A stretch of 64,000 bases of DNA, taken from the NCBI RefSeq assembly GCF_024734075.1, contig NZ_CP102850.1, forward strand, positions 2,046,001-2,110,000, written 5' to 3'. The translations under genes and the position numbers were made by a program. The notes beneath the pieces were generated by a model that worked only from the letters and a program-made list of their open reading frames with translations, had not been told where the DNA came from and searched no databases. Source of the DNA: Gordonia mangrovi (GTDB lineage Bacteria; Actinomycetota; Actinomycetes; Mycobacteriales; Mycobacteriaceae). Positions 39,493-42,244 of the stretch are shown in pieces. How positions within the stretch are numbered: the first letter of the stretch is position 1; each line of letters starts with the position of its first letter.

Positions 39493-40149
39493 ATGAGCTC
39501 CCTCGCCGACGACGTGCTCCCACTCATCCGAACCCGCGCCGATCTGCACACCTGGCGGGCTTCCAACGCGCACGGAGCGCGCATGCAGGAAGCGGTGGCC
39601 ATGCTCCAGCAGGCCGCCGCCCACGGCGACCCCGTCGAGGTGTTCGCGGTGACCCAGAAGGCCATCGCGTCGGCGGTCACGGTGATCATGCGCGCCGACG
39701 ACTCCAGCGGCATCATGGGCGACGCCATCCGCAGCCTCCTGGAACTGCACGCGGACATGGCCGCGCCGGCGCAGGTCGCACCGGCGAAGCTGGTCGACTG
39801 GATGATCACCTTTCAGTTCCACAGTGACTGTGACTTCTTCACGATCGACCCGGTGCGCTACGCCGCAGCATTGGGCGATGTCGGGATGGCGCGCTATCGC
39901 AGGCGCATCGACGAGATCCGCGATGATCTCGGACCCGCAACCGACGATCTGCGCGACCGCTACAGTCATGCGCGAGTCATGTTGCACTACAACGACCAAC
40001 GGCTGGCCGTGCTCGACCGTGACGTCGACGCGATCATCCGGACGCATGCGCGCGACGAGCGTGCCGCGGCCTGGCTACACGACGCTGCGAAAGCCCTCGC
40101 CGAGATCGAGCAGTACGACCTCGCGATCGAGACATCCCTGAAGGTTTGA
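39493..40149 (+). pseudogene. DUF6880-like gene, 5' part (split by IS110)
   Basis: Encodes ~213 native residues from MSSLADDVLPLIRTRADLHT to AEIEQYDLAIE, all helical repeats. At 40131 the IS110-family element begins and adds only TSLKV before a stop. The sequence resumes in register at 41663 (WAQRAATRDPWHQALAAAE). The DUF6880/SWIM-associated assignment rests on the helical repeat style and on the convergent SWIM helicase gene next door. Family assignment is tentative; the split is well supported. Confidence 0.75.
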
Positions 40150-40151
40150 TG

Positions 40152-41381
40152 TCAAGCCGCGGCGGTGGTTTGGTCCTTCCATGCGGTGGCGGGGTCGTAG
40201 GGGATACCGCGGGCCAGGCAGCCATGGAGTATGCCGACGAGGCGGTTGGCGAGTTGGCGTAGCGCGGCGTTGTGGTCGACGTCTCGGGCTCGTTGTTTGC
40301 GGTAGTAGGCGCGGGCGCCGTCGTCGTGCATGAAGGCTCCGTGGGCCTGGGCCATCAGGGCGTCGACGAGTCGGTCGTTGTGGACGTAGCGGGCGGAGAC
40401 GATCCGCGATTTGCCCGACTGTTTCGTGATGGGGCTGGTGCCCGCCGCGTTGCGGCGGGCTTTGCTGTTGCGGAAACGTAACGGGTCGTCCCCGAACTCG
40501 GCGAGCACCCGGGGTCCCACGGTCGGCCCCATGCCGGGCTGGCTGAGGTAGATCTCATGGTCCGGGTGCTGGGAAAAATGGGCATCGACCTCGCCGGCGA
40601 GCTCGTCGATCTGCTCGATCACCACACCCAGCACCGCCACCGAGGCGCGCACCGAGGCCGCGTAGGCGTCGGTGACCCGATCAGGTTGGCCGAGGTGCTG
40701 TCCGCGTAGGATCTGTTGTATCTCAACAGCTTTGGTGTCTTTGTTGCGGCGACCCTTGAGGAGGGGCAGGATCTGGCTTTTGGTCAGCTTCGCCGCCCGC
40801 GCCGGGGTCGGCGCCTTGGTCAGCAAGCCCAGGATCGGCCGGCTCGTCAATTCCAGATCCAACGCCGAACACACCAGCAGGATCGCCGGGAAGTACTCGC
40901 GCAGCGCCGCACGCACCCGCAGCATGTGGCGCGTGCGTTCCCAGATCATCGTCTGATGCGCGCGGGCCACCACCTTGACCGCGTCCGCGATCTCGGAGTC
41001 CCCACCACTTTCCCGCAACTGGTGGCGACGACTCCGCAGCATCTCGGCCAGCGCATGCGCATCACCCTTGTCGCTCTTGGCGCCCGAACTGACCACGATC
41101 TCGCGGTAGCGATGGGCCTGTTTGGGATCGACTCCAAATACCCGATACCCCGCAGCGATCAACGCGTTGACCCACGGACCGCGATCGATCTCGATACACA
41201 CCAGCACCTGGTCAGGCTGATCGCCCTCGTCGAGGAAGGTCGCCGCGATCTCCCCGAACCTCTCGATCCCGGCGATCCCCTCAGGCAACCGCGCCCGCCG
41301 CAACACCTGCCCACGCTCGTCTTGAAACTCGACATCGTGGTGGTCTTCGGCCCAATCATCCCCGACGAACAACACTGCCAC
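40152..41381 (-). CDS. IS110-family transposase (DEDD recombinase)
   Basis: 409-residue recombinase. The N-terminal RuvC-like DEDD domain shows VGDDWAEDHHDVEF, CIEIDRGPWVNALI and KSDKGDAHALAEML. A coiled helical middle is followed by the Tnp20 domain (LSQPGMGPTVGPRVLAEFGD; ARRNAAGTSPITKQSGKSRI, with the conserved Ser). GTG 41381 is chosen for GGAGG at 41394-41390. It works with a bridge RNA that selects donor and target DNA. The gene appears intact. Confidence 0.93.
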   Translation of the reverse strand: MAVLFVGDDWAEDHHDVEFQDERGQVLRRARLPEGIAGIERFGEIAATFLDEGDQPDQVLVCIEIDRGPWVNALIAAGYRVFGVDPKQAHRYREIVVSSGAKSDKGDAHALAEMLRSRRHQLRESGGDSEIADAVKVVARAHQTMIWERTRHMLRVRAALREYFPAILLVCSALDLELTSRPILGLLTKAPTPARAAKLTKSQILPLLKGRRNKDTKAVEIQQILRGQHLGQPDRVTDAYAASVRASVAVLGVVIEQIDELAGEVDAHFSQHPDHEIYLSQPGMGPTVGPRVLAEFGDDPLRFRNSKARRNAAGTSPITKQSGKSRIVSARYVHNDRLVDALMAQAHGAFMHDDGARAYYRKQRARDVDHNAALRQLANRLVGILHGCLARGIPYDPATAWKDQTTAAA

Positions 41382-41429
41382 TGCCGGTGCCTCCTCACAG
41401 CTACCAAGCCGTCGATTGTTCAACACGGC

Positions 41430-41645
41430 AGCTGGCCGGAGGACCCTCGCGAACTAATGGTTCAGTGCTCACACCCCGAAACCACATCGGAGCCGGCACG
41501 ACATCCCAGCAGCAATCACACCCTCTTGGCCGACCACCAGGGGCACGGTCTCGATCCAGAACTCGCCATCAACGGTTCCGTAGGCACGAGTGCTCACCCA
41601 GCAGCAGCCACCAACACCAAGTCTGACCCAAACTCACGACCAGAC
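41430..41645 (-). ncRNA. Predicted IS110 bridge RNA
   Basis: Read on the minus strand. A 5' hairpin (GTCTG/CAGAC, 41645-41621) comes first. The target loop follows: guide GTGCCTA (41587-41581), hairpin GGAAC/GTTCT, guide GATCGAG (41556-41550), closed by GCAC/GTGC and GGG/CCC pairs. The donor loop follows: GGGATGTC (41507-41500), hairpin with GTGC/GCAC and CCGA/TCGG, then CCATTAG (41460-41454). GGGATGTC equals the IS end at 40138-40131; CCATTAG is antisense to the other end (41656-41662). Target guides fit the reconstructed site GTGCCCA-CT-CGATC with one G.U wobble. RNA ends are approximate. Confidence 0.75.
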
Positions 41646-41662
41646 CCAGTAGCTCCCATTAG

Positions 41663-42244
41663 TGGGCACAACGCGCCGCGACCCGTGATCCGTGGCATCA
41701 GGCACTCGCGGCGGCCGAGACCTGGTGCGATCTGGTCGCCACCCACCGACCCGACGACGTGCTCGCCGTCCGACTGGAGGTGTTTCGTCGGTGGCCGTCA
41801 TCGACCACCGCGGCCCGACTCCATGCGACCGCCGGCGACGAGTGGGCCGCCATGCACGACGAGGTCACCGAGACACTCGACGCACGCCCGCGGGATGCCG
41901 TCGTGTTCAGCCTCCACACACTTCACGACCCTCAGCGCGCCTGGGCGCAGGCGAACTCACTGGGCCTGACCGACAGTTCCCTGTGGTTGGACCTGATCAA
42001 GAGGTACGAGAAGATCGACCGATTAGCAGTCCTCGAGCCACTGACCGCGTTGACGCTGTCCGAACTCGAGAACGCCGGCGCCGCGCACTATCGCACAGCG
42101 GCGCGCCACCTGAAACGCATGCGGCGGTTGGCTGCGAAGACCGACCGCGCCGGCGGGGTCGACGCTTTGATCGCAGAGTTACGGCACACCCACCGCAATC
42201 GCCCCCGCATGCAGACCGAGTTCGACAAGGCCGGCCTGCCCTGA
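41663..42244 (+). pseudogene. DUF6880-like gene, 3' part
   Basis: Continuation of the gene broken at 40131: WAQRAATRDPWHQALAAAET through LIAELRHTHRNRPRMQTEFD and a stop at 42242-42244. Helical repeats throughout, such as LWLDLIKRYEKIDRLAVLEP. Together the halves give ~406 residues. It converges with the SWIM/SNF2 helicase gene, 24 bp apart. Confidence 0.75.

What the first reader, a model, noticed from the sequence alone, without database searches (positions are those of the whole stretch)
41430..41645. Readable bridge RNA: donor and target guides match IS ends and the reconstructed insertion site
On the minus strand the noncoding end has two internal loops in order. Loop 1: GTGCCTA, hairpin, GATCGAG; these pair with opposite strands of the restored host site (GTGCCCA-CT-CGATC) with one wobble. 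Loop 2: GGGATGTC, hairpin, CCATTAG; the first equals one IS end, the second is antisense to the other. This is the arrangement described for IS621-type bridge RNAs (established), derived here from sequence alone.
Basis: partly seen in the sequence, partly recalled or inferred. Interest (0 to 1): 0.8.

Follow-up and report, generated by a model that had tools for sequence, protein, structure and literature searches.

The report
RNA guide of a jumping gene
A jumping DNA element in an actinobacterium carries a small RNA whose two loops spell out where the element lands and what its own ends look like; this is a clear new example of a recently discovered kind of programmable recombination system, not a new kind.

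Summary
The window carries an IS110-group element on the minus strand (40132-41660, 1529 bp plus one CT core) inserted in a DUF6880-like gene. Its upstream non-coding end has two guide loops. Loop 1 matches the restored target with one wobble; loop 2 matches both element ends. None of 20,000 shuffles gave the four guides in order. Six further copies in the genome have identical guides at related CT sites. In relatives, 59 distinct target loops match their own sites at 8.86 of 12 positions against 4.27 for foreign guides; 0 of 20,000 permutations reach that. Donor guides track the element ends, a handshake base complements the target in 59 of 62 elements, helices covary, and a sigma70-like promoter forms across the circle junction in 62 of 62 elements. 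With 411 aa the recombinase fits the long IS110 subgroup, not the IS621 branch. Verdict: new member of a known kind. Possible extras: a stem closing both loops, use of Gordonia REP-like repeats, and one relative that seems to have inserted into its own guide DNA.

The parts
40130..40131 (-). Core dinucleotide CT at the RE/host junction
   Evidence: AG on the + strand at both junctions; one copy remains in the restored ORF.
41661..41662 (-). Core dinucleotide CT at the host/LE junction
40132..41660 (-). IS110-group insertion sequence, 1529 bp excluding core
   Evidence: same ends in 7 of 7 genomic copies; six are 1529 bp and differ at one position at most, the seventh is interrupted.
40152..41387 (-). 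IS110 recombinase (DEDD RuvC domain + Transposase_20 domain), 411 aa; start GTG at 41387 after GGAGG is inferred
   Evidence: PF01548 and PF02371 above cutoff; NF033542 'IS110 family RNA-guided transposase' above cutoff.
41427..41651 (-). Predicted bridge RNA (5' end about 7 nt after the junction -10 box; 3' end at the closing stem; both ends inferred)
   Evidence: no transcript data.
41580..41587 (-). Left target guide (LTG), GTGCCTAC
   Evidence: matches left target GTGCCCA+C with one U.G wobble.
41550..41557 (-). Right target guide (RTG), GGATCGAG; the last 7 nt pair with CT+CGATC
41549..41549 (-). Target-loop handshake base A, complementary to donor base T before the core
   Evidence: A with donor T in 56 of 58 elements, with C in 2.
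41500..41507 (-). Left donor guide (LDG), GGGATGTC, identical to the RE end
41454..41460 (-). Right donor guide (RDG), CCATTAG, antisense to core + LE end
41453..41453 (-). Donor-loop handshake base U, complementary to target base A before the core
   Evidence: Watson-Crick in 59 of 62 elements.
41427..41433 (-). 3' arm of the 7-bp stem that closes both loops (5' arm 41606-41612)
   Evidence: 94.8% of cells paired.
41606..41612 (-). 5' arm of the 7-bp closing stem
39493..42244 (+). Host gene (first half matches DUF6880) split by the insertion; 406 aa when the flanks are joined at one core

Best explanation
This is an autonomous IS110-group element, by recombinase length of the long (IS110 proper) subgroup. 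Its upstream non-coding end encodes a bridge RNA. The element leaves as a circle; the RE-LE junction then forms a promoter (TTGACA-17-TCTAAT) that drives the bridge RNA. The recombinase binds the RNA, whose first loop pairs with the two strands of a target (roughly GCCTA-CT-CGATC) and whose second loop pairs with the circle junction (GGGATGT-CT-AATGG). Strands are exchanged at CT, leaving no duplication beyond the core. Shown by sequence: element ends, restored target, guide pairing and its covariation, junction promoter match, RNA fold by covariation. Inferred from published IS621 work: transcription, RNP formation, circle formation, strand exchange.
For: Seven genomic copies with the same ends, core and guides at seven different related sites. 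Own guides match sites at 8.86 of 12 positions versus 4.27 foreign; 0 of 20,000 permutations (maximum 5.34) reach it; no foreign guide scores higher in 46 of 59. RDG is the exact complement of core plus LE end in 95 of 101 rows and changes with it (CTAATGG, CTAATGA, CTAATCA, CTAATAA); LDG equals the RE end over eight bases in 73 of 96 rows and follows its GGGA/GGGG change in 94 of 96. Handshake base complements target base -1 in 59 of 62 elements, permutation maximum 51. Junction promoter in 62 of 62 elements, 10-11 of 12 consensus bases, -10 box across the core. 96.9% of helix cells paired, 24 of 40 pairs with double changes, slid controls 38-49%. A covariance model finds the seven copies in the genome at E 5e-35 and one chance-level hit at E 0.7. 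In two genomes of the same genus that were not in the model (G311, G326), LTG CAGCTCG met left targets AAGCTCG and CCGCTCG, and the RTG matched CAAGG at the 2 of 3 copies whose right flank was held (the left match of the third copy, L159, lies in a copy of its own left end and is not counted). IS621-equivalent D, E, D, D and S residues are invariant in 17 aligned relatives.
Against: No transcript, binding or recombination data. Single-sequence folding is not more stable than shuffles, and the MFE pairs parts of the guides. In the window copy the wobble lies at target position -2, where wobble is otherwise nearly absent among relatives (own 0.3 against 7.5 expected). Several copies match LTG weakly: L002 has 4 Watson-Crick and 1 wobble of 7. 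In 13 of 59 elements at least one foreign guide scores higher. 3 of 62 elements miss the handshake pairing, and so do the three out-of-sample copies L149, L151, L159, which have U opposite G. The integrated right end still scores 7-10 of 12 as a promoter because it keeps the -35 box.
Confidence: 0.96

Rival explanations
1. The guide matches are chance or an artefact of ends chosen to fit; the element finds its site by protein recognition alone.
For: The single-copy match is short, and one target guide alone appears in 2-3% of shuffles.
Against: Ends were set by seven copies and conserved termini, not by the guides; guides change together with sites across 59 loops; donor and handshake bases also covary.
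Confidence: 0.02
2. IS1111-type seekRNA system (guide RNA in the downstream end, sub-terminal inverted repeats).
For: Same recombinase superfamily and same idea of a guide RNA.
Against: The non-coding region is upstream (273 nt) and the downstream end is 20 bp. The guide that pairs with the bottom target strand comes first, which fits the order that the seekRNA paper gives for the IS110 family (passage).
Confidence: 0.02
3. The non-coding end is mainly a cis-acting regulatory leader or attenuator of the recombinase mRNA; the pairing to target and ends is secondary.
For: The RNA would run straight into the recombinase gene and is structured.
Against: A leader would have no reason to covary with the genomic target or with the element termini.
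Confidence: 0.03

Closest known systems
IS621 bridge RNA system (Durrant et al. 2024, PMC11208160; Hiraizumi et al. 2024, PMC11208158)
   Same: Upstream end encodes an RNA with target loop then donor loop; order and strands of LTG/RTG and LDG/RDG; CT core; handshake bases; junction sigma70-like promoter; insertion into REP sequences (seen: sections 6, 7, 12 and passages of the first, section 7 and passages of the second).
   Different: Recombinase 411 aa against 315-330 aa for the IS621/IS492 branch; only profile-level similarity (E 7.7e-17). The IS621 donor loop is nucleotides 110-177 of a 177-nt RNA, so no stem after it can close both loops; here a 7-bp stem appears to. RTG here matches about five bases beyond the core; in the IS621 structure RTG pairs with positions 11-8, that is the core plus two, though that group reports longer RTGs in other IS110 orthologues.
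IS110 proper of Streptomyces coelicolor and its 395-455 aa subgroup
   Same: Recombinase length class (passage of PMC11187229) and actinobacterial hosts; relatives found in Streptomyces, Nonomuraea, Nocardia and others.
   Different: The IS110 type sequence itself was not fetched or compared; subgroup placement rests on length and hosts, not on a tree.
seekRNA of ISEc11 (IS1111) and ISEc21 (IS110) (PMC11187229)
   Same: RNA from the non-coding region with complements to both target strands; natural reprogramming reported there (passages only).
   Different: seekRNAs are 70-100 nt in that paper; the RNA predicted here is about 225 nt with both target and donor loops. The cluster with ISEc21 has recombinases of 345-385 aa.
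ISCro4 recombinase (PDB 9t56)
   Same: Profile match E 1.2e-14.
   Different: 341 aa; no single-sequence match; its paper was not read.

Membership tests
IS110 family | DEDD RuvC-like domain PF01548 plus PF02371 | tested here: met
   (E 1.2e-28 and 3.3e-10, both above cutoff); NF033542 above cutoff.
IS110 family | Catalytic D, E, D, D and a serine-glycine in the C-terminal domain | tested here: met
   D9, E64, D104, D107, S322, G323 (numbered from 41381; add 2 from 41387) invariant in 17 relatives and aligned with an IS621 D, E, D, D, S-G (roles from passages of PMC11208158).
IS110 family | Scarless insertion at a short core, no longer target duplication | tested here: met
   Core CT only; restored 406-aa ORF; same ends in 7 of 7 copies. 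Absence of terminal inverted repeats was not computed.
IS110 group (versus IS1111) | Long left end carrying the RNA, short right end | tested here: met
   273 nt upstream, 20 bp downstream.
IS110-group bridge RNA | 5' stem-loop, then two stem-loops with internal loops | tested here: met
   (helices 2-7); 5' segment has z below -1 against mononucleotide shuffles in 46 of 50.
IS110-group bridge RNA | Loop 1 pairs with both target strands; loop 2 with both donor ends | tested here: met
IS110-group bridge RNA | Handshake guide bases | tested here: met
   59 of 62 and 56 of 58; second donor-loop handshake base shows no signal, 19 of 62.
IS110-group bridge RNA | Promoter formed across the circle junction | tested here: met
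   62 of 62 elements, consensus match only; activity not testable here.
IS110-group bridge RNA | RNA expressed, bound by recombinase and needed for recombination | not testable with these tools
   No RNA-seq or assay available.
IS621/IS492 subgroup | Recombinase of 315-330 aa closely related to IS621 | tested here: not met
   411 aa; phmmer finds no PDB chain at 1e-3, profile only; length classes.
IS1111 group | RNA in the right end | tested here: not met
   Right end is 20 bp.
IS1111 group | Sub-terminal inverted repeats | not tested
   Not computed.

The most novel reading that the evidence does not exclude
In the long-recombinase IS110 subgroup the bridge RNA has a different fold from IS621's: one 7-bp stem closes target loop and donor loop into a single multibranch unit. 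And because LTG-coding DNA is by construction a copy of the left target (with the core where the LTG ends in CT), elements can insert into their own target loop, as one relative (L159) appears to have done; this would be a built-in route to loss or swapping of guides.
Probability: 0.25. Interest if true: 0.5.

Novelty: new member of a known kind. Interest (0 to 1): 0.3.

Why it matters
It is a fully readable bridge RNA in an actinobacterial element with seven copies at seven sites in one genome, so guide rules can be read from natural insertions. It is a candidate programmable recombinase of the long subgroup; the only IS110-family recombinases that the profile found in the PDB copy are IS621 and ISCro4. 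It also offers a small natural test of single-base specificity: among REP-like repeats of one pattern in this genome, those reading CGATC carry 3 insertions of 13 and those reading CGACC carry 0 of 44. It does not change what is known about the mechanism.

Tried and rejected
Rfam scan of the whole window: no family at gathering score. Single-sequence folding as evidence: rejected, z 0.02. Direct PDB search with the recombinase: no hit at 1e-3; a profile was needed. Wobble as a designed feature of LTG: only weak support. Over 64 elements wobble-compatible changes occur at 0.76 of expectation against 0.48 for other transitions and 0.45 for transversions; bootstrap P 0.029 and 0.003; at positions -4 to -1 P 0.06 and 0.026. 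The elements are related, so I do not claim it. Target-loop swap between the window element and the G. rhizosphera element: identity inside the loop is 32 of 43 columns, outside 60 of 75 and 103 of 128, so no clear swap. Second handshake base against target -2: 19 of 62, no signal. Insertion into a copy's own target loop: of 14 pattern hits in the loci held, only L159 is one; the other 13 I judged by eye to be chance or antisense matches.

Rows dropped and choices. One search kept 80 of 329 encoding stretches. Of 114 loci oriented, 4 duplicates of the same places (L049, L050, L068, L086) were skipped and 5 were not parsed for lack of CTAAT at the expected distance (L026, L028, L036, L058, L106); 105 parsed, plus L016 added by hand (also in the donor counts); 90 rows had both flanks, in 59 distinct loops. 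The register of the guides was fixed from the window element and two relatives (groups L100 and L106), so these three are not independent of the rule. The loop-flank pattern was widened after one search failed on some loci, before the statistics were computed. Of 31 loci L140-L170, the script parsed 13: 7 are the window genome's own copies, and L148, L150 and L158 are the same elements as L048 and L025 of the earlier set. L147 (the chance-level hit), L152-L157 and L160-L170 were not parsed or scored; most of these were not looked at further. Alignment A2 holds 50 of the 67 distinct loops: 14 relatives under 54.5% recombinase identity were left out, and of five with reversed stored strand two are represented (the window; a Tsukamurella copy) and three are not (L021, L024, L027). 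The structure counted is the one predicted on the same alignment, less one helix. In the covariance-model searches the tool scored 150 of 3192 first-look candidates and 39 per genome, so weak or odd copies may be missed. An earlier count said 85 bp for the partial copy in L159; the right length is 82 bp with the core.

Full report
What is there. The minus strand of the window carries an IS110-group insertion sequence. Its body is 40132-41660; the core CT stands once on each side at 40130-40131 and 41661-41662. The recombinase gene is 40152-41387 (or from 41426, the first possible start), with both Pfam domains of the family and NCBI's 'IS110 family RNA-guided transposase' model above cutoff. 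The upstream non-coding end is 273 nt and the downstream end 20 bp. Joining the flanks at one core gives a 406-aa reading frame whose first half matches DUF6880. The host is very probably a Gordonia: the nearest named relative of the recombinase, 90% identical, is in Gordonia rhizosphera (L048), and that same sequence is held in G316, which the tool lists as the same genus as the window's genome.

LTG, RTG, LDG and RDG lie where stated. LTG matches the left target at six of seven bases plus one wobble, RTG matches core plus five, LDG is the right end, RDG is antisense to the left end. In 20,000 dinucleotide shuffles of the non-coding end none had the four guides in order; nine had the two target guides in order.

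Other copies. The genome holds seven copies: six of 1529 bp that differ at one position at most, and one interrupted by foreign DNA, which the protein search reports as two pieces. All seven have identical guides. The seven sites, left target | core | right target, are TCGGCTA|CT|CGATCAG, CGACCTA|CT|CGATCAC, AGGCCTA|CT|CGATGAC, TCGCCCA|CT|CGATCGG, GCGCCTA|CT|CGATCAG, CGGCCTA|CT|CGATCAG and, in the window, GTGCCCA|CT|CGATCGC. The right target CGATC is kept in six of seven, and the base before the core is A in seven of seven.

Relatives. I took 80 loci from named genomes (of 329 stretches found) and further loci from 301 genomes of the same family, the window's own among them (22 with a match at 1e-100). 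The left end begins CTAAT, and the right end reads GGG[A/G]TGTCT shortly after the stop codon, in most. The target loop sits between two conserved flanks, so guides can be read in a fixed register. For 59 distinct loops with both flanks known, own guides match 8.86 of 12 site positions, foreign guides 4.27; 20,000 permutations never exceed 5.34; in 46 of 59 no foreign guide does better. Match rates rise towards the core: 0.36, 0.54, 0.56, 0.62, 0.75, 0.77, 0.90 from -7 to -1 and 0.98, 0.97, 0.96, 0.96, 0.49, 0.35 from +1 to +6; with foreign guides they are 0.26-0.38 except at -1 (0.65) and +3 (0.67). The elements are related by descent, so the permutation figure is not a strict probability.

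Donor side and handshake. RDG is the exact complement of core plus left end in 95 of 101 rows and follows four different left ends; the other six rows differ at one base, and in four of them the change leaves a G.U pair. LDG equals the right end over all eight bases in 73 of 96 rows, and its GGGA/GGGG difference is followed in 94 of 96. The base after RDG complements target base -1 in 59 of 62 elements (permutation maximum 51), with four kinds of pair of which G-C makes 49; the base after RTG is A, opposite donor T, in 56 of 58. These are the handshake positions of PMC11208158 (passages). The out-of-sample copies L149, L151 and L159 have U opposite target G and so miss the Watson-Crick rule.

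Promoter. Joining right end and left end as in a circle gives TTGACA (or TTGACG/TTGACC), 17 or 18 bases, and TCTAAT (or CCTAAT) in 62 of 62 distinct elements, 10-11 of 12 consensus bases, with the -10 box across the core. The integrated right end scores 7-10; the integrated left end 5-8 in 58, 10 in one, and was not computed in three. The -35 box overlaps the recombinase stop codon. PMC11208160 describes such a junction promoter (passages).

Fold. The consensus of 50 relatives has a target stem with LTG and RTG unpaired around an apical hairpin, and a donor stem with LDG and RDG in loops, save for one short helix over part of LDG. With that helix left out, 96.9% of cells pair, 24 of 40 pairs have double changes, and sliding the partners by 1-3 columns drops pairing to 38-49%. 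The 5' segment folds better than mononucleotide shuffles (z below -1) in 46 of 50. A further 7-bp stem joins the segment before the target loop to the segment after the donor loop: 94.8% of its cells pair and 12 cells have double changes (shuffles 2.4, slid versions 0-7), but only three of seven pairs show them, a number that 93 of 500 shuffles reach. In IS621 the donor loop is nucleotides 110-177 of a 177-nt RNA, so this stem has no place there. Figure 6d of PMC11208160, which draws six bridge RNAs, could not be seen, so I do not claim the stem is unpublished.

Model search. A covariance model from the 50 relatives finds the seven copies at E 5e-35 and one further, chance-level hit (E 0.7) in the 5.39-Mb genome; 150 of 3192 first-look candidates were scored, so no orphan bridge RNA of this type was seen there within that limit. 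It finds matches in 11 of 59 genomes of the genus, the window's own included. In two of these that were not in the alignment (G311, G326) the guides again match the sites.

Targets. The genome has 54 REP-like palindromes CTCGATACG-(8-36)-YACTCGAYCA against 0 for the reversed pattern; exact GCTACTCGACCAGCGG occurs in 9 of 59 genomes of the genus. Emptied, three of the seven insertion sites match the same pattern, all three in the CGATC form. Counting occupied and free sites, 3 of 13 CGATC repeats are occupied and 0 of 44 CGACC repeats (Fisher one-sided 0.0098). The G. rhizosphera element has an RTG for CGACC and sits in CTCGCTACTCGACCAGCGG. IS621 also targets REP sequences (passages). Outside repeats, GCYYACTCGATC occurs at 8 free places in the genome, and four of the seven emptied sites contain it.

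Placement. By recombinase length this fits the 395-455 aa IS110 subgroup of PMC11187229 (passage), not the IS621 branch. It works like IS621 in the sequence features that could be tested. It is a new member of a known kind. Four literature searches were made; no title or abstract start in the listings was about this element or IS110 in Gordonia, but the library lacks most subscription journals.

Noticed in passing
L159 1419-1500 (G326:C3:296084-296165): A full element is preceded by an 82-bp exact copy of its own left end that stops after LTG+CT, while the right flank is an ordinary target. It reads as insertion of a second circle into the LTG-coding DNA of a resident copy followed by loss of the rest. 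The only such case among 14 pattern hits.
   Followed up: partly
L016 (G000:C1:3171700-3175000): Seventh copy of the element is interrupted by 941 bp of foreign DNA that looks like transposase debris (not searched); its guides and ends are intact.
   Followed up: partly
G000 genome-wide, e.g. 1871972-1872015: A family of REP-like palindromes CTCGATACG...CTACTCGACCAGCGG, 54 copies by one pattern against 0 in the reversed control; its end occurs exactly in 9 of 59 genomes of the genus.
   Followed up: partly
L100-L103 and L105 (Phytohabitans flavus), 5 copies: All five copies sit in the same dispersed repeat, whose bases equal the guides apart from one wobble.
   Followed up: no
G000:C1:3682514-3683413 and 3660308-3660694: Two other, distant IS110-family genes (30% and 38% identity; the second a short match) in the same genome; their bridge RNAs were not examined.
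   Followed up: no
L106 (Ca. Mycobacterium methanotrophicum): One of ten copies compared has lost its left end up to the RDG, replaced by what looks by eye like another transposase gene end.
   Followed up: no
L155, L156 (two genomes of the same genus): A sister group with GACCAC before the target loop; by eye its LTG matches the flanking site only with three and two wobble pairs.
   Followed up: no
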